From Bacteroidota bacterium (GTDB lineage: Bacteria; Bacteroidota; Bacteroidia; 2-12-FULL-35-15), in NCBI GenBank assembly GCA_023251835.1, contig JAHEXZ010000034.1:1-48391 (forward strand): a stretch of DNA of 48,391 nt, given 5' to 3'. The notes below the pieces were generated by a model. It had not been told where the DNA came from and searched no databases. It worked only from the letters and a program-made list of their open reading frames with translations. Below, in pieces: positions 2-22,153 of the stretch. The translations under genes and the position numbers were made by a program. The number at the start of each line of letters is the position of its first letter. Positions within the stretch are counted from its first letter, which is position 1.

Positions 2-850
2 GCGAATACCATTATAACCCAACAAAAAGCAGAAGTAGAAAAGCAAAAAAAAGTTGTAGAAGAAAAAAATAAAGATATTCTTGACAGCATCCATTATGCC
101 AAACGCATACAAGATGCACTGCTAAAGGCAGAAGAGCATGTTTCGGAACATTTACCTGAGCATTTTGTTTTGTTTACGCCCAAAGATATAGTAAGCGGTG
201 ATTTTTATTGGACGTATGAGGGGGTGAGGTATTGGTATGTTGCAGCAGTTGATTGTACAGGACATGGCGTACCGGGTGCATTTATGAGTATGCTCGGCAT
301 GTCATTTCTTAATGATATTGTTTCATCAAACAGTTGGCTGAGCGCAGCCGAAGCCACACCTGCCGAAATCCTTAATCAGCTTCGTGATAAAGTAGTAAAA
401 GAACTACGTCAAACGGGCGAAACCGGAGGAAGTAAAGATGGTATGGATATTTCCCTTGTTAGACTAAAATTAACACAGGGGGCTGAGCCTGTCGAAGTCC
501 AGTGGGCGGGTGCCAATAATGCACTAAATATAATTCAAAACGGGGAACTCCGAGAGATCAAAGCAGATAAGCAACCCATAGGCTATCATCCCGCACCAAA
601 ACCATTTACCAACCACGAAATACAAATCAAAAAGGGTGATAGCATTTATATTTTCTCCGATGGCTATGCCGACCAGTTTGGCGGCCCAAAAGGAAAAAAG
701 TTTAAGTACAAACAATTAGAAGAATTGCTTCTAACAAATAACCATTTACCAATGGACGAACAAAAAAATATTTTAAAAAAAACGTTTACTGATTGGAGAG
801 GCGCATTGGAGCAGGTGGATGATGTTTGTGTGATTGGGGTTAGAGTTTGA
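2..850 (+). CDS. SpoIIE/PP2C-family serine phosphatase, C-terminal part (cut by window edge)
   Basis: The frame is open to the left edge, so the true start lies outside the window. The visible part begins with a charged, Lys/Glu/Gln-rich helix that looks like a coiled coil, followed by the motif DSIHYAKRIQDAL that links sensors to this phosphatase domain. The phosphatase then carries the expected metal-binding acidic motifs: DIVSGDFYW, DCTGHGVPGAFMS, KDGMDISL, SDGYADQFGG and QVDDVCVIGV at the C-terminus. Such enzymes dephosphorylate Ser/Thr on anti-anti-sigma-like or other partner proteins; the partner is not visible here. The domain is a close paralogue of the C-terminus of the gene at 16107-19304, sharing the signature after SDGYADQFGG. 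The missing N-terminus is probably a TPR or propeller sensor, by analogy only. Confidence 0.9.
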   Translation, partial: ANTIITQQKAEVEKQKKVVEEKNKDILDSIHYAKRIQDALLKAEEHVSEHLPEHFVLFTPKDIVSGDFYWTYEGVRYWYVAAVDCTGHGVPGAFMSMLGMSFLNDIVSSNSWLSAAEATPAEILNQLRDKVVKELRQTGETGGSKDGMDISLVRLKLTQGAEPVEVQWAGANNALNIIQNGELREIKADKQPIGYHPAPKPFTNHEIQIKKGDSIYIFSDGYADQFGGPKGKKFKYKQLEELLLTNNHLPMDEQKNILKKTFTDWRGALEQVDDVCVIGVRV

Positions 851-9950: not shown

Positions 9951-12900
9951 ATGAAAAAAATTACTTTTAAGTTTATTATTGCTGCATTTTTACTTTTAAT
10001 CAGCAACATTAGCCTGTTCGCTCAGAGCGTTAATTTAACTGCCAGTCCTAATCAGGGATGTGCTCCACTTGCTGTAAGTTTTAATGTCAGCGGTAACCAG
10101 CCTACAGGTACTTATCGCGTTGTATGGGACTTTAATGACGGCAGTCCGGCATTTCTTGATACGGTGCCTCTTTTAACTACCGTAACTCATACATTTGCCA
10201 ACCCCGGCTACTATAATGTATGGATAACTGCCTTTGATAATGCGGGTAATAATCTTGGCACTGTTTATTGCAATAACAATATCCAGGTAGATGGCATTTC
10301 TATTAGTTCATCGGATTCTGCCTGTATAAATGATTTAACTTCGTTTTGCGCAAATGGTGACCAGGTTAACTCCGTTTCATGGAGTTTTAGTGATGGCTTT
10401 ACATCCAACCAGCAATGCGTTGATCATGCTTTTACCACTACAGGAACTAAAACAATAACCCTTACTGCAAGTTCATCCTGTGGAACCCAAATTGTAACCA
10501 AAACTATTGTTGTGTCAACTACAGCACAGCCTTATCCTTATATGTGGGCAAACTCAAATTCCACTTGTTCGGGTGCTCCTGTTAGTTTTTATACTGGGAC
10601 GTACGCATCGTATTTCTGGTATTTTGGTGATGGAACTACTTCAAATTTACAATATCCAGAGCATGCCTTTACAACAACTGGAAATTATACTGTTATCTTA
10701 ACTGTAACAAATGGATGCGGAATGTCCGGTTCTGCTCCCACTCAAACAATATCTATTATTAATAACCCTCCGTTTCCTAACCAATCATGGTTTAATTTAA
10801 ATAATTCTTCACCTGTTTGTCCGGGTTCTAATGTGAGTTTTAATGCACCTGGCGGTTACAATAGTTACCAATGGAATTTTGGAGATAATTCGGCAGTAGT
10901 AACAACTACTGATAGTTGGGCCAACCACACTTATGGCAATACGCTTGGAAATTATACAGCAACTGTAAAAATATTCAGCGCTTGTGGAACTGATACTACC
11001 ATGTCTTCCATTGTTTATATAACTAATAATGCCCCATGGCCAAATGATCCGCAGTGGTTTACCATGCAAAATAGTTCTCCGGTATGTCCAAATTCAAATG
11101 TATCTTTTAATGCGCCTGGTGGTTACAATACGTATCAATGGAATTTTGGTGACAATTCTCCTGTTGTTACAACAACTGAGAACTATAGTAATCATACCTA
11201 TGGTAATACATATACAAATTATACAGCTACTGTAACAATAACGAATAGCTGTGGAAACGATACTACACTATATTCTGTTGTTCATGTAACTAACAATGCC
11301 CCATGGCCAAATAATCAGAACTTTACATTAGAAAATGCACCTTTTTCCTGCCCGAACTCAAATGTAAGTTTTAATGCGCCATGGGGATATAGCAATTATC
11401 AATGGAACTTTGGAGACGACTCAACTATAGTAACAACTACAAATAATTACAATCATCACACTTACGGCTCATCGCTCAGCCAATATACTGTTTCTGTAAA
11501 AGTAACTAATAACTGTGGAAGTGATACAATACTATATTCAACAGTTAATATAAGCAGCACAGCACCATGGCCTAACAATTGGTTTGATTTATATGTTAAC
11601 TCACCTTCCTGCCCGAATTCCAATGTAGGTTTTAATGCCCCGGAAGGTTATAGCAACTATCAGTGGAGCTTTGGTGATAATTCTCCATTGATAACAACCA
11701 ATACCAATTGGGCGAATCATTTTTATGGTAATGTAACTGGTACTTACAGTGTTTCTGTAAAAATAACCAGTGCTTGCGGAAATGATACCATTTTGTATTC
11801 GACATTAGTGATAAACAATACTGCTCCATTCCCTAACCAGTCATGGTTTAAATTGGAAAGTCCAAATTCTGCATGTCCGAACGATGATGTGAATTTTAAT
11901 GCCCCTGATGGATACCCGCATTATGAATGGAACTTTGGGGATGGATTTCCTGTTGCTGTTACAACGCAGAACTACAGCCATCATAGTTATGGTAATACAA
12001 ACGGAACGTATACAGCTTCTGTAAAAATTACCAATGGTTGTGGCCAGGATACTATATTATATACTACCATACAGGTTTTAAACACCGGAGGTTTCTCAAA
12101 TCAGTGGTTTGAATTATATACTACTTCCCCAGTCTGTCCTAATTCAAATGTAGGCTTTGGAGCACCTGATGGATATTCCAGTTACGTATGGGATTTTGGT
12201 GATAATTCACCTCTTACCACTTCCAGCAGCAATAATTATGGCCATACATATCTGGGTACCGCTCAAACCTATACAGTTTCAGTAAAGATAACCAATGGCT
12301 GCGGAAATGATACCACCTTATTTGCAACGGTACAGATACAGAATAACGTTGGTTTCCCAAATGATCAATGGTTCAAAATAGAAGGAGGCCCAAATCCTGC
12401 ATGTCCTGGTGATCAGGTGAATGCAAATGCTCCTTGGGGCTATTCTGACTATTTCTGGAAATTTGGTGATGGAGATAGTATTTCCAGCAGTCAAAACTAT
12501 GCACACCATGTTTATACAACAGCTGGAACCTACACTTATTCCGTAAAAATTACCAATGCCTGTGGAAATGATACCACTCTTTTTGGTACTATTGTGGTTG
12601 GAAGTAATGGAGCCTTTTACAGTGGGCTAAGCATTGAAATAGATCAAAATACAAGCTGTCCTAATGATTTGATTCATTTCAGACTTAACCAGAATGGTTT
12701 TAATGCTTATCACTGGAATTTTGGTGATGGTGATTCTGTCACTACAAACGGAGAAGATATACAACATGCGTTTGATACGCTTGGGCTATATACAGTATCC
12801 TGTAAAGTTTCAAACGGATGTGGTAATACAACAACTGTATATGCAACAATTCAGGTAACAAGTAATAGCCCTGTAAGTGGTGATTTAGCTGTGATGGGTA

Positions 12901-15900
12901 TACAAAATCCATCTTGCCCTGGTGATAATGTGTTTTTTGTTCTGAATGATATACAAGCTACTACTACCTATATATGGAATTATGGAGATGGTTCTCCTGC
13001 AGATACAACTGTTGGTACAGGTTCTAATCATGTTTATTCTTCAATAGGAACTAATGTTGTAACCGTTACAGCTATTAATACCTGTGGAATGAGTAAAACA
13101 GTTACCATGACACAGATTGTTTCTTCCGGACCTACACCAAGTCTTATCGGTCAGGATGGAGGAAAAACCTGGGGCTATCCCGGAGGTGAAAATAATAACA
13201 ATGGAACTGTCGGTTGTGCTGGTGATGCCATTATTTTTTACTTCATGGGATCTGCGGCAAATAATGTATGGGATTTTGGAGATGGCAATACGGGAACTGC
13301 AACAGAAGAAATGTTAGTGAGTGGTGGAGATGGTGGGGTATTTCCTGTTACTATTATCAAACACGTATATACCAACAATGGATCTTATGTTGTTCACCTT
13401 ACAATTACAAACAATTGTGGCAATAGTGTAACGGATTCTATAGCAATTAATGTTGGAGGAAATCAGCCTGTAAACGGGGAATTAACAACTTCTCCCCCAC
13501 CATATACAACCTGTGCTCCAATTGATTTCCTTGCATTTGGCGGTTCTACTTATGCCTGGAACTTTGGTGACGGAGCTACTCTTACTTCATCTTCACCTAC
13601 AGCTTCACATACGTTTGCTACACAGGGAGTTTATGTTGTAACTGTTTTGGTTACCAATGGTTGTGGAAACACAGCAACATATTCAAAATCGGTTAATGTA
13701 AATGGTGCCGGAGGCCCTGCTATTACGATTGTTTCCTCTACCAGTCCAACCTGTGTTGGTGGAAATAACGGAAGTGCAATTATTGCTGTTGCCAGTGGAC
13801 AAACGCCTTATACTTATTCCTGGACAAATCCAAACGGACAATTAAATACACAAACTACTGATTCAGTTACTAACTTAACTCCGGGAATACACTATGTGAA
13901 AGTGACTGATAACATTGGTTGTGCTTCTATATTTGCAGTAAATATTAATAATGCTGTACCTATTATACTTGCAGGTTCTTCAACAGCATCGTCATGTACA
14001 TCTGCAACCGGTTCGGCAAGTGTTAGTGTTACAAGTGGCGGAAATGGCCCATTCACTTATTCCTGGTCGAACGGAAGTACAACATCATCTATATCGAATC
14101 TTGCTTATGGATTGTATTCAGCAACAGTAACCGATTTAAATGGATGCCATGCAACTGCTAACGTTAATGTTAGTCAAACCAATGCTCCTACAATTACTTT
14201 AAATACAGTAACCGATGTTACTTGTTATGGAAGTAATGATGGTGCAATAAATATTAATGTTGCCGGTGGTACTTCTTATACTTACTTGTGGTCAACCGGT
14301 GCAACAACTCAGGATATTGACAGCCTGGTTGCCGGAACATATAATGTTCAGGTTACAAGTAATACAGGTTGTTCAGGAGTATTTAATGCTACTGTTGCAG
14401 AGGCAGCCATTTTACAGGTTGTTACAGCTACTGAGGCTGCTCCAACTTGTGGCAATTTTGATGGCGAGGCTTCGGCTACCGTAACCGGTGGAACATCTCC
14501 TTATACTTATCTGTGGGATGCGAATGCTAACAACCAAACAACAGCAACTGCTACCGGACTTCCTGCCGGAACATATACTGTTACCGTTACTGATGCACAT
14601 GGATGTACTGAAGACTCAGAAGTATCTCTCAGCAACTCTAATGCTCCGGATATAGCCGCTGTTGTTACAGATATAAGCTGTAATGGTAATGCCGATGGTT
14701 CAATTGATATTACTGTAACTGGTGGTACTTCTCCTTATTTATATACATGGAATGTTGGGTCTCCTCAAACAAATCATCAGGATTTGAACACATTAGGTGC
14801 AGGTAATTATCTGATATTTGTTAATGATGCACAAGGTTGTATGAGCGTACGCAGCTATACAATTGTTGAACCTGAACAACTGGGAGTTACAGTTACCAAT
14901 ACAGGTGCTACATGTAATATAGCTGATGGAACTGCAATGGCAACTGTTGAAGGTGGAACTACTCCATATACTTATTCCTGGACTGGTGGACAAACTTCAC
15001 AAGATGCGGATAGTTTAGCAGTAGGCAGCTACACAGTAACAATTACTGATAATAAAGGATGTATTGCCACTGCAACAACAACAGTTGCCACTTCTGCACC
15101 TACTCCAAGCATTTGTATGGTTACAGTAGATGAAGCATCTGTTAACAATATCATCTACTGGGATAAAACAACATATACCAATGTAGATTCATTTATAGTT
15201 TACCGTGAGGTTTCTACTAACTTATACAAACGTATTGGTGCTGTACTTTACGATTCACTGAGTATGTTTGCAGATACTACACGTAGTGTTGGCCCTGCAA
15301 ATGGTAATCCTAATGCCGGTACATACCGTTATAAATTACAATTGCTTGATGCTTGCGGAAACTATAGTGCTATGAGCCCTTATCACAATACAATTTATGT
15401 GGTTGATAACGGACAAGGTCAATTCACCTGGAATTCTTATGACGTTGAGGGTGTTTCGTCCTCTCTTGCAAACAATTATATTTTGATTTGTGATACAGCC
15501 AACTTAAATTCCTGGTTTGCTGTTGCAACAGTTGCAGGAACACAAACTGTAGCCGTTGACCCTGATTTTGCAACTCATAACCTGGATTCTGCAGCCGTTT
15601 GGCGTGTAAAAACAGACTGGAGCATTACTTGTGATCCTTCAAGGGCACCAATTGTAACTTCTCGTTCTAATAAAAAGCATGCAACTCCTACCGGTATTTC
15701 AACATTATCTTTCGCAGATATGGGTATGAAAGTATACCCTAATCCGGCAAAAGATAATCTGACTGTCGAGTTGGCACCATTGGATAAAAATGCCCGATTA
15801 AAAATTGTAAATATGTTAAGTCAAACAGTATACAATGAGGTAATTAACGCTTCTTCTGTTAAAACAATAAAACAGGTGAATACGGGTAATTATTCAAAAG

Positions 15901-15965
15901 GCGTTTATTATGTTATTCTTGAAACAACAGGCAAAACAACAATGAAAAAATTGGTAATAGATTAA
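9951..15965 (+). CDS. Giant secreted PKD- and SprB-repeat protein with T9SS sorting domain
   Basis: 2004 residues. A signal peptide (KFIIAAFLLLISNISLFAQ) is followed by 14 PKD-like modules (about 27-1255), each with a WNFGDG-type core and ending in an NGCGxDTT-like strand. Modules 4-10 (about 276-890) are close copies with a period near 87 residues. Then come six SprB-type repeats (about 1260-1715; TCxGxxDGxxxxxVxGGTxPYTY), an Fn3-like segment (about 1720-1820), and a C-terminal T9SS type A sorting domain (VYPNPAKDNLTVEL... KKLVID). SprB is the gliding adhesin of Flavobacterium johnsoniae, so this is probably a surface adhesin or matrix protein exported by the T9SS. It has its own promoter and terminator, so it is likely monocistronic. 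Confidence 0.93.
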   Translation: MKKITFKFIIAAFLLLISNISLFAQSVNLTASPNQGCAPLAVSFNVSGNQPTGTYRVVWDFNDGSPAFLDTVPLLTTVTHTFANPGYYNVWITAFDNAGNNLGTVYCNNNIQVDGISISSSDSACINDLTSFCANGDQVNSVSWSFSDGFTSNQQCVDHAFTTTGTKTITLTASSSCGTQIVTKTIVVSTTAQPYPYMWANSNSTCSGAPVSFYTGTYASYFWYFGDGTTSNLQYPEHAFTTTGNYTVILTVTNGCGMSGSAPTQTISIINNPPFPNQSWFNLNNSSPVCPGSNVSFNAPGGYNSYQWNFGDNSAVVTTTDSWANHTYGNTLGNYTATVKIFSACGTDTTMSSIVYITNNAPWPNDPQWFTMQNSSPVCPNSNVSFNAPGGYNTYQWNFGDNSPVVTTTENYSNHTYGNTYTNYTATVTITNSCGNDTTLYSVVHVTNNAPWPNNQNFTLENAPFSCPNSNVSFNAPWGYSNYQWNFGDDSTIVTTTNNYNHHTYGSSLSQYTVSVKVTNNCGSDTILYSTVNISSTAPWPNNWFDLYVNSPSCPNSNVGFNAPEGYSNYQWSFGDNSPLITTNTNWANHFYGNVTGTYSVSVKITSACGNDTILYSTLVINNTAPFPNQSWFKLESPNSACPNDDVNFNAPDGYPHYEWNFGDGFPVAVTTQNYSHHSYGNTNGTYTASVKITNGCGQDTILYTTIQVLNTGGFSNQWFELYTTSPVCPNSNVGFGAPDGYSSYVWDFGDNSPLTTSSSNNYGHTYLGTAQTYTVSVKITNGCGNDTTLFATVQIQNNVGFPNDQWFKIEGGPNPACPGDQVNANAPWGYSDYFWKFGDGDSISSSQNYAHHVYTTAGTYTYSVKITNACGNDTTLFGTIVVGSNGAFYSGLSIEIDQNTSCPNDLIHFRLNQNGFNAYHWNFGDGDSVTTNGEDIQHAFDTLGLYTVSCKVSNGCGNTTTVYATIQVTSNSPVSGDLAVMGIQNPSCPGDNVFFVLNDIQATTTYIWNYGDGSPADTTVGTGSNHVYSSIGTNVVTVTAINTCGMSKTVTMTQIVSSGPTPSLIGQDGGKTWGYPGGENNNNGTVGCAGDAIIFYFMGSAANNVWDFGDGNTGTATEEMLVSGGDGGVFPVTIIKHVYTNNGSYVVHLTITNNCGNSVTDSIAINVGGNQPVNGELTTSPPPYTTCAPIDFLAFGGSTYAWNFGDGATLTSSSPTASHTFATQGVYVVTVLVTNGCGNTATYSKSVNVNGAGGPAITIVSSTSPTCVGGNNGSAIIAVASGQTPYTYSWTNPNGQLNTQTTDSVTNLTPGIHYVKVTDNIGCASIFAVNINNAVPIILAGSSTASSCTSATGSASVSVTSGGNGPFTYSWSNGSTTSSISNLAYGLYSATVTDLNGCHATANVNVSQTNAPTITLNTVTDVTCYGSNDGAININVAGGTSYTYLWSTGATTQDIDSLVAGTYNVQVTSNTGCSGVFNATVAEAAILQVVTATEAAPTCGNFDGEASATVTGGTSPYTYLWDANANNQTTATATGLPAGTYTVTVTDAHGCTEDSEVSLSNSNAPDIAAVVTDISCNGNADGSIDITVTGGTSPYLYTWNVGSPQTNHQDLNTLGAGNYLIFVNDAQGCMSVRSYTIVEPEQLGVTVTNTGATCNIADGTAMATVEGGTTPYTYSWTGGQTSQDADSLAVGSYTVTITDNKGCIATATTTVATSAPTPSICMVTVDEASVNNIIYWDKTTYTNVDSFIVYREVSTNLYKRIGAVLYDSLSMFADTTRSVGPANGNPNAGTYRYKLQLLDACGNYSAMSPYHNTIYVVDNGQGQFTWNSYDVEGVSSSLANNYILICDTANLNSWFAVATVAGTQTVAVDPDFATHNLDSAAVWRVKTDWSITCDPSRAPIVTSRSNKKHATPTGISTLSFADMGMKVYPNPAKDNLTVELAPLDKNARLKIVNMLSQTVYNEVINASSVKTIKQVNTGNYSKGVYYVILETTGKTTMKKLVID

Positions 15966-16106: not shown

Positions 16107-19100
16107 ATGATCCGTGTACGATTTAAGTATTATTTGTTTTTCTTATTCTCCTTACTGCTGAACAGAGCTATTGCCCAGCAATACAACTTTAAAAATTATA
16201 CCCCAAAAAATGGGCTTGCAAGCTCCATTGTGATTAATATTTTTCAGGATAGCAAAGGCTACTTATGGTTTGCTACCCAGGGAGGAGGCATAAGCCGGTT
16301 TAATGGCAAGGAATTTAAAAATTTTACAAAAAATGATGGACTTGTTTCAAATGATATTACCTGCATTAATGAAGATAAACAAGGTAATATATGGATTGGA
16401 ACAACAACAGATGGAGTTTCAAAATTCGATGGTCTGAAATTTCATAACTATACTATAAAAGAAGGACTGGTTAATAATTCGGTATATTCTATCTATTGTG
16501 ATAATAAAGGGAATGTTTGGTTTGGTACAGAAGGTGGCGGTATCTCGATATTAAACAATGGAAATTTTATTAAGAAGATCACTAGTGGTGATGGACTTTC
16601 TTCCAACACAGTATATGCCATTACCCAGGATAAAAAGGAAAATTACTGGTTTGCTTTAAAAAATGGTATCGCAAAATTTGATGGGGCAAGAATTATAAAT
16701 TATGATAAAATACCTCCTTTTAATAATAAAAAATTCTGGGCAATATTTTGTGATACTAAGGGTGAACTCTGGTTTGGTTCAAGTAATGGTGGGGTTATTA
16801 AATTCAATGGGGCGCATTTCTTTGAAATTAAACTTCCGGAAGAAATAAGCAAAGATTTTATTGGAAGCATAGCAGAGGATACACACGGAAATATATGGTT
16901 TGCAACCGAACATGGGGCATTGAAATATGATGGACACAATTATACCTTGTTTGATGAAGAAAAAGGATTGTCTTCTAACATTGTATTTTCAATCAGTCCG
17001 GATTACGAGGGAAATATTTGGATAGGCACTCAACAGGGTGGAGCTAATCTATTCAGCAGTGAAGCCTTTGTTAGCTATACTTCTCAAAATGGTCTTATTA
17101 GCAATAAAATAACATCTGTTTGCCAAACCGATGATAATTCTTACCTAATTGGAACATTGGGTGATGGAATTATTGATTTTTCAAATAATACTTTTTGCCG
17201 CATTACTTCTATTCCGGAATTAAAACAGAGTATAATATCTTCCATAACTAAAGATAATCAGAACAACGTATGGATTGGAACAAATGATGGAGTGTTTATA
17301 GTAAAAAAACAAAATGGCACCTATGTATTAAATAAATCCATCAAAGAGCTTGCTAAAACTACATTACCTATGATAGCAAATATTATTCAGGATAAACAGG
17401 GTGCTATCTGGATTGCAACGTATGGAGCGGGAGTGTTTAAAATTGACGATAATAAAACGGAGAGATATTTTGCAAATAATGGATTGGTATCTGATAACAT
17501 ATTAACAATGTTTAAAGACAGCAAAGGTGTTATTTGGTTGGGAACCAATGATGCTGGTGTAGTGAAATTAGAGAATGGTAATTTTACAAATTATTCCGAA
17601 AAAGAAGGGCTTGCGAGTAAATCTGTATGGACGATTACTGAAGACGAAAACCAGAATATGTATTTTGGAACAAATGACGCAGGTATAAGTTGTTTTGATG
17701 GTAAACGATTTAAAACACTGACTGTAGGCGATGGATTATGCTCTAATAATATTACCACTCTTATTTGGGATACTATTGATAAAAGTTTATTTGTAGGCAC
17801 TGACAAAGGAATTAATAAGTTAAAGTTATCGTCAGGCCTTAAAATAGAATTGCTTAAGTATTACGGTGAGCAGGAAGGTTTTAAAGGAGGAGAAGTAACT
17901 TCTAATGCTGTATTGATTGATAATGAGGGGGTAATCTGGTTTGGAACCCCTAATGGTTTATTCAGATATAATCGTAAATATGATTTTGCCAATACCGTAG
18001 CCCCAAAACTCAATTTAGGTGCTATTCGTTTGTTTTATCAGAATGTGGATTGGCTAAAATATGCAGATTCTGTTGATTTGAAAACTAATTTACCACATAA
18101 CCTGGTGCTATCTCATAAAAATAACCATTTGACTTTCGATTTTCAGGCTCTTACTACCAGTGATGTAAAATATACCTATATATTGGAAGGTCAGGATATG
18201 GACTGGTCTCCGCTGTCGGCAACTTCAGAAGCAAGTTTTACCAATATTGCTCCTGGAAAAACCTATACTTTCAGAGCAAAAGCAGTAAATAATAATGGGG
18301 TATGGAGTAATGATGACATTTCATTTACATTTACCATCAATCCTCCCTGGTGGCAAACCTGGTGGTTTTATACTTTAACTGTATTAAGCATTGTTCTTGG
18401 TGTTTTCGGATTCATTAATTACCGTACAGCAAAATTGGCGGAAGAGAAAAAAATACTGGAAGAAAAAGTAATTGAACGTACACATGAACTAAAACAAGCC
18501 AATACCAGGCTTTCAGAAGCAATTCATGCTATAACTGACAGTATGAATTATGCACAACGTATTCAGCAAAGTTTTCTTACTTCGGAAAAATTGCTTGACC
18601 AAACATTAAAAGATTATTTTATTTTTTATGCGCCAAGAGATATTGTCAGCGGAGATTTTTATTGGTCGTATGATTTACCCGACAGAACGTTGATTGCTTG
18701 TGCTGATAGCACAGGTCATGGCATTCCCGGTGCTTTTATGAGCCTCATTGGGCTTAGTCTTTTGAATGAAATAGCAAATTCAAAAGCAATATTTGAACCG
18801 GCAGCCATGCTGAATGAATTAAGACGTATTATTATTTGCGGACTTAATCCTGAACAATCAGAAACAGGTGGCAAAGATGGAATGGATATCTCCTTGATTT
18901 CGATAATGAAATCTCCCGATTCTGATAACGTTAAAATTTATTTTTCCGGTGCAAACAGTACTTTGTGTCTTACTTCTAAGCATAGTGAACAAGCGGAACT
19001 TCTTGAATTCCGGGGCGACAAACAACCTGTAGGATATTACTCAATAATGAAACCCTTTACCCAACAGGAAATTATTGCTAAAAAAGGTGATACACTTTAT

Positions 19101-19304
19101 ATGTTTACTGATGGTTATGCCGATCAATTTGGTGGCCCTAACGGAAAAAAGTTTATGGCTAAACAGCTCAAAAAAACAGTGTTGGTTATGGCACATTTAC
19201 CATTGAACATACAGCAGGTAGTATTGAAAAAAACATTTGCAGAATGGAAAGGAGAGCTTGACCAGGTAGATGATGTAACAGTTATTGGCGTGAGACTGGG
19301 CTGA
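16107..19304 (+). CDS. Membrane sensor: 14-blade propeller, Y_Y_Y domain, TM helix, SpoIIE phosphatase
   Basis: 1065 residues. A signal peptide (YYLFFLFSLLLNRAIAQ) precedes 14 two-component-regulator-propeller repeats (about 27-640), each with a D-x-x-G-x-[IV]-W-[FI]-G-T core: enough for two seven-blade propellers. A Y_Y_Y immunoglobulin-like domain (about 670-745) leads to one transmembrane helix (about 750-772), a coiled coil (EEKKILEEKVIERTHELKQ) and a SpoIIE/PP2C phosphatase (about 838-1065) with DIVSGDFYW, DSTGHGIPGAFMS, KDGMDISL, TDGYADQFGG and QVDDVTVIGV. The outer half matches hybrid two-component (HTCS) sensors, but the histidine kinase is replaced by a Ser phosphatase. It probably turns a periplasmic ligand into a partner-switching signal; ligand and target are unknown. 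Confidence 0.93.
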   Translation: MIRVRFKYYLFFLFSLLLNRAIAQQYNFKNYTPKNGLASSIVINIFQDSKGYLWFATQGGGISRFNGKEFKNFTKNDGLVSNDITCINEDKQGNIWIGTTTDGVSKFDGLKFHNYTIKEGLVNNSVYSIYCDNKGNVWFGTEGGGISILNNGNFIKKITSGDGLSSNTVYAITQDKKENYWFALKNGIAKFDGARIINYDKIPPFNNKKFWAIFCDTKGELWFGSSNGGVIKFNGAHFFEIKLPEEISKDFIGSIAEDTHGNIWFATEHGALKYDGHNYTLFDEEKGLSSNIVFSISPDYEGNIWIGTQQGGANLFSSEAFVSYTSQNGLISNKITSVCQTDDNSYLIGTLGDGIIDFSNNTFCRITSIPELKQSIISSITKDNQNNVWIGTNDGVFIVKKQNGTYVLNKSIKELAKTTLPMIANIIQDKQGAIWIATYGAGVFKIDDNKTERYFANNGLVSDNILTMFKDSKGVIWLGTNDAGVVKLENGNFTNYSEKEGLASKSVWTITEDENQNMYFGTNDAGISCFDGKRFKTLTVGDGLCSNNITTLIWDTIDKSLFVGTDKGINKLKLSSGLKIELLKYYGEQEGFKGGEVTSNAVLIDNEGVIWFGTPNGLFRYNRKYDFANTVAPKLNLGAIRLFYQNVDWLKYADSVDLKTNLPHNLVLSHKNNHLTFDFQALTTSDVKYTYILEGQDMDWSPLSATSEASFTNIAPGKTYTFRAKAVNNNGVWSNDDISFTFTINPPWWQTWWFYTLTVLSIVLGVFGFINYRTAKLAEEKKILEEKVIERTHELKQANTRLSEAIHAITDSMNYAQRIQQSFLTSEKLLDQTLKDYFIFYAPRDIVSGDFYWSYDLPDRTLIACADSTGHGIPGAFMSLIGLSLLNEIANSKAIFEPAAMLNELRRIIICGLNPEQSETGGKDGMDISLISIMKSPDSDNVKIYFSGANSTLCLTSKHSEQAELLEFRGDKQPVGYYSIMKPFTQQEIIAKKGDTLYMFTDGYADQFGGPNGKKFMAKQLKKTVLVMAHLPLNIQQVVLKKTFAEWKGELDQVDDVTVIGVRLG

Positions 19305-21283: not shown

Positions 21284-22153
21284 ATGAGGCAACTAAAAAT
21301 CTCCAAACAGGTTACTAATCGCGAAACAGCGTCACTTGATAAATATTTACAGGAAATAGGCAGAGTTGAAATGATTACTGCAGAAGAAGAGGTGGAGTTA
21401 GCCCGCAGGATACGTGCCGGTGATCAGGCTGCTCTGGAAAAACTTACTAAAGCTAATTTACGTTTTGTGGTTTCTGTATCCAAACAATATCAAAATCAGG
21501 GACTTAGCTTGCCTGATTTGATTAATGAAGGCAATTTAGGCTTAATAAAAGCCGGCCAGCGTTTTGATGAAACTCGTGGTTTTAAATTTATATCTTATGC
21601 TGTTTGGTGGATACGTCAATCCATTCTTCAGGCATTAGCTGAACAATCCAGGATAGTGCGTTTACCTCTCAATAAAATAGGCTCTATAAACAGAATCAAC
21701 AAAACATTTGCAAAGCTTGAACAGGAATTTGAACGTGAGCCAAGCCCTGAAGAAATTGCCGGTATTCTTGAAATTACAGAGCTTGAGGTTAAAGAATCAA
21801 TGAAGATTACAGGTCGTCACGTATCTATGGATGCCCCATTGGCTATGGGCGATGAAAATGCCGGAAATATGTATGATTTAATGGAGGCAGATGATAGTCC
21901 AAGCCCGGAAAACGGTTTAATTAATGAATCGTTACGCAGGGAGATTGAACGTGCTTTATATACCCTTACTCCTCGTGAAGCGGATGTGATAAGGATGTAT
22001 TTTGGTTTAAATGTAGACCATGCCATGACATTGGAAGAAATTGGCGAAAAATTGGATCTTACCCGTGAACGCGTGCGTCAAATCAAAGAAAAAGCGATAC
22101 GCAGACTAAAACAAACATCACGCAGCAAGATATTAAAAACTTATTTGGGATAG
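21284..22153 (+). CDS. rpoD: Primary RNA polymerase sigma factor, Bacteroidota type
   Basis: 289 residues; Bacteroidota housekeeping sigma factors are this short because region 1.1 and the non-conserved insert are missing. Regions seen in order: 1.2 ([20 protein letters not shown]), 2 ([20 protein letters not shown] and the melting segment [14 protein letters not shown]), 3, and 4 with the helix-turn-helix [20 protein letters not shown]. It directs polymerase to TAnnTTTG promoters such as those marked in this window. It is followed closely by rpe on the same strand (102 bp to its ATG), but rpe has its own -7 box. Confidence 0.96.

What the first reader, a model, noticed from the sequence alone, without database searches (positions are those of the whole stretch)
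16107..19304. HTCS-like outer sensor joined to a SpoIIE phosphatase instead of a histidine kinase
Fourteen propeller repeats plus Y_Y_Y are the outer half of hybrid two-component systems that detect glycans. Here the output is a PP2C Ser/Thr phosphatase. This would connect an outside ligand to partner switching. A second phosphatase of the same subtype ends at 850, so the output domain is used at least twice in this genome. Propeller-SpoIIE fusions occur in Bacteroidota, but I know of no defined ligand or target.
Basis: partly seen in the sequence, partly recalled or inferred. Interest (0 to 1): 0.5.

Follow-up and report, generated by a model that had tools for sequence, protein, structure and literature searches.

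The report
Sugar-sensor-like protein wired to SiaA-type phosphatase
A bacterial sensor of the type that gut bacteria use to detect complex sugars is here attached to a protein phosphatase of a biofilm-control switch, and the genome carries dozens of such phosphatases together with the matching switch proteins, so the wiring can now be tested.

Summary
ORF 16107-19304 (1065 aa) is a signal peptide, 14 propeller blades, Y_Y_Y, one transmembrane helix, a coiled coil and a SpoIIE/PP2C phosphatase. A model splits into two known structures: residues 25-747 fit HTCS sensors (3v9f, 4a2l), 802-1065 fit SiaA-PP2C (6k4e, 2.0 Å over 244 aa). Metal-binding residues are intact. Partner switching is right in kind, but the likely substrate is the STAS-like SiaC family, with SiaB as kinase, not a classical STAS protein. 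The genome has 44 SpoIIE ORFs, 10 SiaC matches and 6 SiaB genes. In 13 genomes 38 of 63 SiaC clusters have such a phosphatase within 5 kb (6.2 expected), 12 a propeller-phosphatase, mostly in operons. No GGDEF was found, so a SiaD-like target is missing. The window gene itself is not SiaC-linked; 12 of 16 orthologues sit directly behind a type IX-secreted SprB-repeat protein. Substrate, ligand and effector are inferred. New variant of known kinds.

The parts
16107..19304 (+). propeller/Y_Y_Y-PP2C sensor phosphatase, 1065 aa
16107..16172 (+). signal peptide (aa 1-22), cleavage before AQQYNF inferred
   Evidence: sequence; predicted N-terminal helix aa 2-18
16179..17072 (+). first 7-bladed propeller (aa 25-322)
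17088..17996 (+). second 7-bladed propeller (aa 328-630)
18024..18341 (+). Y_Y_Y domain (aa 640-745)
18360..18422 (+). transmembrane helix (aa 752-772)
18432..18584 (+). coiled coil plus conserved switch helix I-x-D-S-x-x-Y-A-x-x-I-Q (aa 776-826)
18594..19298 (+). SiaA-type PP2C phosphatase domain (aa 830-1064): D850, D867, G870, D927, D1002, D1006, D1055, D1056; DQFGG loop 1006-1010
9951..15965 (+). 2004-aa secreted protein (PKD and SprB repeats, type IX C-terminal sorting domain) 141 nt upstream; linkage conserved in orthologues
2..850 (+). second SiaA-type phosphatase, cut at its 5' end by the contig end

Best explanation
It is an inner-membrane sensor phosphatase of a SiaABC-type partner switch. 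The periplasmic double propeller plus Y_Y_Y (HTCS fold) binds a ligand or surface-protein cue; the change passes through the single TM helix, coiled coil and switch helix to a cytoplasmic PP2C (a dimer in SiaA); the active phosphatase removes phosphate from the Ser/Thr of a SiaC-family (DUF1987) protein that SiaB-family kinases had phosphorylated; SiaC then acts on an effector. Shown here: domain make-up, both folds, intact catalytic residues, presence of SiaB and SiaC in the genome, Ser/Thr at the expected position of most SiaC proteins, and operon linkage of paralogous propeller-phosphatases with SiaB-SiaC. Inferred: that this particular protein acts on SiaC, which SiaC, the ligand, the direction of control, and the effector, which cannot be a GGDEF cyclase if the assembly is representative.
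For: Fold: 25-747 vs 3v9f Z 36.4 and 4a2l Z 33.8; 802-1065 vs 6k4e Z 32.1, rmsd 2.0 Å over 244 residues. SiaA is the only PDB sequence hit at E 0.01, E 1.1e-35, aligned through the coiled coil. Own SpoIIE ORFs share SiaA's DQxGG loop in 37 of 44 and the five-position core of its switch helix in 39 of the 42 rows that hold it; the RsbU-like C142 has neither and scores 33 bits on the SiaA profile vs 166-193 for the four SiaA-type proteins of that call. 38 of 63 SiaC clusters have a phosphatase matched by the SiaA-like HMM within 5 kb vs 6.2 expected from density, 22 as direct neighbour. SiaB-SiaC-x-propeller-PP2C in own C83, G214, G215; propeller-PP2C-x-SiaB-SiaC in 7 further relatives. SiaC and SpoIIE counts rise together over 36 congeneric genomes: Spearman 0.63, partial 0.49 after genome size. 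In the class sample the 4 SiaC-bearing genomes are exactly the 4 with 3 or more SpoIIE matches among 22. Pseudomonas biochemistry: SiaA-PP2C dephosphorylates SiaC T68 in peptide LLYLNTSSIK (PMC7647112, passages); the equivalent position is S/T in 61 of 69 ORFs matched by the SiaC HMM.
Against: No SiaC in any of the 21 loci L154-L174 related to the window gene (up to 10 kb each side, less where contigs end), so its link to SiaC rests on subtype and paralogues. The clusters are related by descent, so the nominal p (5.5e-23) overstates independence; 25 of 63 clusters have no phosphatase within 5 kb. Outside the class the rule fails: of 130 genomes there with a SpoIIE match only 8 have SiaC, so SpoIIE proteins in general do not need SiaC. 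Five SiaC ORFs carry I or V at the acceptor position. The SiaA score (175 bits) is far below the NCBIfam equivalog cut-off of 700. 3 STAS and 5 HATPase_c_2 matches leave a classical partner possible; one sub-cut-off HATPase_c_2 match (C47:15305) lies in a 1236-aa ORF about 0.6 kb from a propeller-phosphatase gene. No biochemistry.
Confidence: 0.72

Rival explanations
1. Classical RsbU/SpoIIE-type partner switch: the phosphatase acts on a true STAS anti-anti-sigma factor and thereby frees a sigma factor held by an RsbW-type kinase.
For: 3 STAS and 5 HATPase_c_2 matches exist in the genome. PP2C-STAS pairing is the general rule of the fold family (established knowledge). In the phylum sample most genomes with SpoIIE have no SiaC.
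Against: No SiaA-like phosphatase within about 5 kb of the 3 STAS genes. Subtype is SiaA, not RsbU. A separate RsbU-like phosphatase (C142, 407 aa) exists; matches of similar score are listed for 35 of 36 congeneric genomes and could serve that role.
Confidence: 0.12
2. Gene-specific local circuit: the sensor phosphatase watches or controls the type IX-secreted SprB-repeat protein encoded just upstream (adhesion, gliding or secretion status), whichever cytoplasmic phosphoprotein it uses.
For: In the 17-row sensor clade 12 of the 16 other loci have a homologue of the upstream gene directly upstream, same strand, gap 11-214 nt; L170 has it directly downstream, L164 about 1.5 kb upstream, L157 and L167 lack it there. 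The five rows of the neighbouring paralogue clade (L094, L155_7, L169, L172, L173) have none directly upstream. From the other side, 10 of the 20 listed homologues with 41% identity or more, own gene included, have the sensor within 1.5 kb downstream. In Pseudomonas SiaABCD governs aggregation and biofilm.
Against: Adjacency alone does not show interaction; 10 of those 20 and all 5 examined below that identity lack the sensor within 1.5 kb; the secreted family has up to 20 matches per genome. Compatible with, not exclusive of, the best explanation.
Confidence: 0.3
3. Glycan sensor: the propellers bind an oligosaccharide like Bacteroides HTCS and the switch controls sugar use.
For: Best structural matches are HTCS periplasmic domains, among them the heparin/heparan-sulphate sensor BT4663. 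Four HTCS periplasmic domains bound oligosaccharides by ITC (PMC3243724, passages).
Against: No SusC/SusD or glycoside-hydrolase family came up in the scans of the window ORFs that I tested (many window ORFs were not scanned). Binding residues could not be mapped without model coordinates.
Confidence: 0.25

Closest known systems
Hybrid two-component systems of Bacteroides (BT4663, BT3049)
   Same: Two 7-bladed Reg_prop propellers and Y_Y_Y in the periplasm, one TM helix; same fold over 25-747.
   Different: No histidine kinase, receiver or AraC domain; output is a PP2C phosphatase.
SiaA of Pseudomonas aeruginosa (SiaABCD)
   Same: Coiled coil, switch helix and PP2C domain, with catalytic residues and DQxGG loop.
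   Different: Sensor replaced by an HTCS-type double propeller; no GGDEF (SiaD type) in this genome; dozens of paralogues.
Propeller/Y_Y_Y sensors with a LytS-type His_kinase (PF06580) output in other Bacteroidota (L175-L191)
   Same: Homologous sensor and TM half, 26-34% identity up to about residue 814-835.
   Different: Output is His_kinase in 5 of 5 scanned of the 17. PP2C-linked sensors group apart from the kinase-linked ones on a quick tree: 2 label changes needed, a single one not ruled out.
RsbU/SpoIIE partner-switching phosphatases
   Same: Same PP2C superfamily (PF07228).
   Different: Different subtype: the RsbU-like C142 lacks the DQxGG loop and two of the five switch-helix core positions.

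Membership tests
HTCS | Periplasmic Reg_prop double propeller plus Y_Y_Y | tested here: met
HTCS | Histidine kinase, receiver and AraC domains in one polypeptide | tested here: not met
   no such Pfam match at E 0.001; an HTCS such as L210 shows HATPase_c, Response_reg and HTH_18 in the same kind of scan
SiaA-type PP2C domain | Sequence and fold homology through coiled coil and PP2C | tested here: met
   E 1.1e-35; Z 32.1, rmsd 2.0 Å, 244 residues
SiaA-type PP2C domain | Metal-binding Asp/Gly residues (D457, D474, G477, D534, D600, G601, D604, D653 of SiaA, named in PMC7647112 passages) | tested here: met
   equivalent positions present in this protein; D850, D867, G870, D1002, G1003, D1006, D1055, D1056 invariant and D927 nearly so in 19 aligned proteins
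SiaA equivalog (NF038263) | Full-length score above the curated cut-off of 700 bits | tested here: not met
   175.4 bits, C-terminal part only
SiaABC partner switch | SiaC-family phosphoprotein in the genome | tested here: met
   10 matches over the PF09345 cut-off, two of them cut by contig ends; the C83 SiaC is below the cut-off of the Pseudomonas equivalog NF038265 (65 vs 150 bits)
SiaABC partner switch | SiaB-family kinase in the genome | tested here: met
   9 DUF6272 domains in 6 genes; C83 SiaB 130 bits vs cut-off 85 on the subfamily NF038262, but 64 vs 225 on the equivalog NF038264
SiaABC partner switch | Phosphatase gene linked to SiaB/SiaC | tested here: inconclusive
   met for paralogous propeller-phosphatases; not met for the loci of the window gene's relatives
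SiaABC partner switch | Dephosphorylates SiaC | not testable with these tools
   needs an enzyme assay
SiaABCD | SiaD-type GGDEF diguanylate cyclase | tested here: not met
   0 GGDEF matches at E 0.001 in an assembly 96.6% complete
Classical STAS/RsbW partner switch | STAS gene linked to SiaA-like phosphatases | tested here: not met
   0 of 3 STAS genes with such a phosphatase within about 5 kb, the C99 contig ending 3.3 kb away on one side
Classical STAS/RsbW partner switch | RsbW-type kinase linked to SiaA-like phosphatases | tested here: inconclusive
   no SpoIIE match on the contigs of four of the five HATPase_c_2 matches (C41, C135, C97, C158); the fifth, C47:15305, below the cut-off, lies in a 1236-aa ORF about 0.6 kb from a propeller-phosphatase gene

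The most novel reading that the evidence does not exclude
In this Bacteroidota lineage, in whose studied genome no GGDEF cyclase was found, the SiaABC switch has become a main signalling system: up to dozens of sensor phosphatases (propeller, TPR, PAS/GAF) converge on a handful of SiaB-SiaC pairs, SiaC acts on an effector other than a diguanylate cyclase, and the window gene is a branch that reports on a type IX-secreted surface protein encoded beside it.
Probability: 0.3. Interest if true: 0.78.

Novelty: new variant of a known kind. Interest (0 to 1): 0.55.

Why it matters
It also shows one HTCS-type sensor used with two outputs, a LytS-type kinase and a Ser/Thr phosphatase, and points to a type IX-secreted surface protein as a candidate cue or target.

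Tried and rejected
Classical STAS/anti-sigma partner for this phosphatase: considered first, demoted because the 3 STAS genes are not near SiaA-like phosphatases and the subtype is SiaA.

c-di-GMP output by a GGDEF cyclase: rejected for this assembly, 0 GGDEF; relatives were not searched for GGDEF.

A degenerate, non-catalytic phosphatase: rejected, residues intact.

SiaC next to the window gene: looked for and not found in L154-L174.

Structure of the conserved 420-aa C-terminal part of the upstream protein: poor model (pLDDT 57), not searched further. The 487-aa protein between SiaC and the propeller-phosphatases on C83 has no Pfam or NCBIfam match. A conserved SiaC effector was sought among neighbours in 62 loci; the commonest families, a TerB/ABC-2 transporter protein in 10 loci and a putative lipoprotein in 8, are leads only, one representative of each scanned. 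Ligand-pocket mapping was not possible because model coordinates are not exposed.

Literature: judged by titles and abstract beginnings, no paper on propeller-SpoIIE fusions or on SiaC in Bacteroidota was listed (open-licence PMC papers only; searches listed none). Four papers were opened, passages only: PMC7647112, PMC8457831, PMC9239204, PMC3243724; all others were seen as search listings.

Limits of the counts. The careful tree did not finish; the quick tree was used, and repeated without four long rows with the same 2 label changes. In the phylum search for SpoIIE only 15 candidates per genome were scored, so counts there are lower bounds. The SiaC HMM made here also hit one STAS protein (C48), so a few SiaC labels could be STAS, though the regions were chosen by PF09345 hits. 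The SiaA-like HMM also hits the RsbU-like C142; by coordinates, the RsbU-like top matches that one search lists for these genomes lie outside the regions. The 12 relatives were chosen by hand from 35, roughly by contiguity (some, such as G200 and G224, were left out), and only SiaC places listed were fetched. One search examined 25 of the 30 loci. Alignment A1 leaves out the relatives L162, L173 and L174. L155_7, L169, L172 and L173 match full length but fall in a paralogue clade, so L154-L174 are relatives, not all orthologues.
Full report
What is there. The ORF at 16107-19304 is exact. Pfam places Reg_prop repeats, one Y_Y_Y domain and one SpoIIE domain on it, all above gathering scores. [quoted passage not shown] A single hydrophobic stretch (752-772) divides sensor from output.

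Two known halves. An AlphaFold2 model from 19 related proteins has mean pLDDT 85.3, pTM 0.62. Against the PDB, Foldseek's first fifteen rows are periplasmic or extracellular domains of Bacteroides HTCS-type proteins (BT4663, BT3049, BT4673), followed by SiaA-PP2C. VIA-align: 3v9f Z 36.4 (683 residues, 5.2 Å), 4a2l Z 33.8 (693 residues, 4.3 Å), and 6k4e Z 32.1 (244 residues, 2.0 Å) for 802-1065. By sequence, SiaA is the only PDB hit of the output half at E 0.01 (E 1.1e-35) and the alignment runs back through the coiled coil. NCBIfam gives SiaA (175 bits, below the full-length cut-off of 700) and, weakly, the propeller protein PorZ.

Catalysis. The residues that hold the metals in SiaA (PMC7647112, passages) are present here and invariant or nearly so in the 19 aligned proteins. 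Of 44 own-genome SpoIIE ORFs, two are contig-end fragments lacking the first Asp residues; the other 42 keep the equivalents of D850 and D867, and all 44 those of D1002, D1055 and D1056; C52 has V for the conserved Gly, C29:3717 V for D927, and C142 and one fragment a gap there.

How many. The genome (4.1 Mb, 171 contigs, 96.6% complete) has 47 SpoIIE matches in 44 ORFs. Of 42 scanned, 7 carry propellers, 25 TPRs, 1 GAF/PAS only, and 9 (the truncated window ORF among them) no other domain at the thresholds used; two fragments were not scanned. A DQ pair at the SiaA loop is present in 41 of 44, DQxGG in 37 of 44, and the five-position core of the switch helix in 39 of the 42 rows that hold it; C142 is RsbU-like. 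In a phylum sample of 198 genomes this genome had 45 first-look SpoIIE candidates, the next highest listed 21; in its own order (36 genomes, one genus) matches run from 1 to 67.

Partners. SiaC: 10 matches, two cut by contig ends. SiaB: 9 DUF6272 domains in 6 genes, three of them tandem. STAS: 3; HATPase_c_2: 5; GGDEF: 0. SiaC is uncommon in the phylum sample, 13 of 198, but present in 34 of 36 genomes of the order. SiaC and SpoIIE counts correlate over the 36 (Spearman 0.63; partial 0.49 after genome size; incomplete genomes included). In the class sample, of 22 genomes other than this one with a SpoIIE match, the four with SiaC are the four with three or more matches; three of the four share a family and two a genus. 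Outside the class this does not hold: 130 sampled genomes have SpoIIE, 8 of them SiaC.

Linkage. I fetched 55 regions round SiaC genes in 12 of the 35 relatives plus own regions. Of 63 SiaC clusters, 38 have a phosphatase matched by the SiaA-like HMM within 5 kb (6.2 expected from density), 22 as immediate neighbour, 12 a propeller-phosphatase, and 43 a SiaB. The clusters are related by descent, so the nominal p is not a true probability. SiaB-SiaC-x-propeller-PP2C is one-strand with small gaps in own C83, G214 and G215; propeller-PP2C-x-SiaB-SiaC likewise in G210, G202, G232, G209, G229, G221 and G198; a second G232 locus has SiaC next to a propeller-phosphatase; a second G198 locus has the propeller-phosphatase on the other strand. 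None of 3 STAS genes has a SiaA-like phosphatase within about 5 kb. One HATPase_c_2 match below the cut-off (C47:15305) lies in an ORF about 0.6 kb from a propeller-phosphatase gene. The phospho-acceptor position is S or T in 61 of 69 ORFs matched by the SiaC HMM; of the other eight, four have I, one V, and three were not matched by the pattern, two of these with S or T after a His.

The window gene itself. None of 21 loci with its relatives (L154-L174) has SiaC in reach. On the quick sensor tree it lies in a 17-row clade (support 100) distinct from the SiaC-linked propeller-phosphatases. In 12 of the 16 other members the gene directly upstream, same strand, gap 11-214 nt, is homologous to the C-terminal 420 aa of the window's 2004-aa PKD/SprB-repeat protein with a type IX sorting tail; L170 has it directly downstream, L164 1.5 kb upstream, L157 and L167 not. 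The five rows of the neighbouring paralogue clade have none directly upstream. Some loci carry tandem copies. From the other side, 10 of 20 listed homologues with 41% identity or more, own gene included, have the sensor within 1.5 kb downstream; the 5 examined below that identity have none. Genes further upstream (M16 peptidase, deaminase, in two loci also the S8 peptidase) are shared with some of these loci.

Output swap. Relatives L175-L191 match only to about residue 814-835; 5 of 5 scanned carry a LytS-type His_kinase, and L210 is a full HTCS. PP2C-linked and kinase-linked sensors need 2 label changes on the quick tree, shuffled mean 15.6, with one change not ruled out; dropping four long rows gave 2 again.

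Mechanism. In Pseudomonas SiaB phosphorylates SiaC at T68, SiaA removes the phosphate, SiaD activity follows the phosphorylation status of SiaC, and SiaC binding promotes SiaD (PMC7647112 and PMC8457831, passages). That the unphosphorylated form is the one that binds SiaD is recalled. By analogy I propose periplasmic cue, phosphatase change, SiaC dephosphorylation, effector. The authors of PMC8457831 suggest that DUF1987 proteins in general modulate adjacent proteins (passage). With no GGDEF found here, the effector should be another protein. The direction of control, ligand and SiaC identity are inferred or unknown.

Verdict. Confirmed observation, sharpened interpretation, new variant combining two known halves; the most interesting part is the expanded SiaABC network without a GGDEF and the conserved tie to a secreted surface protein.

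Noticed in passing
G000 C90:15724-16815, C47:41594-42694, C100:24867-25949: Three of six SiaB genes are tandem double-domain kinases (about 360 aa, two DUF6272 domains each).
   Followed up: partly
L279, L284, L286 (G198): Larger SiaC-bearing ORFs (367, 273 and 320 aa), the last also matching the SiaB model, so a possible SiaB-SiaC fusion.
   Followed up: no
L089:4578-7667 (-) and homologues near SiaC in 10 of 62 loci: TerB plus ABC-2 transporter protein recurs beside SiaC genes; possible SiaC effector.
   Followed up: partly
L089:7784-8632 (-) and homologues in 8 of 62 loci: Putative lipoprotein without Pfam match, median 23 nt from SiaC.
   Followed up: partly
L091:9253-10713 (+): 487-aa protein without Pfam or NCBIfam match, overlapping SiaC by one base, between SiaC and two propeller-phosphatases; ORFs of 464 and 450 aa lie at the same place in G214 and G215.
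   Followed up: partly
window 21284-22153: RpoD-like sigma factor of 289 aa about 2 kb downstream; probably the housekeeping sigma factor and unrelated.
   Followed up: no
C142:7992-9215 (-): One RsbU-like SpoIIE protein; matches of similar score in 35 of 36 congeneric genomes; no STAS or HATPase_c_2 match on its contig.
   Followed up: partly
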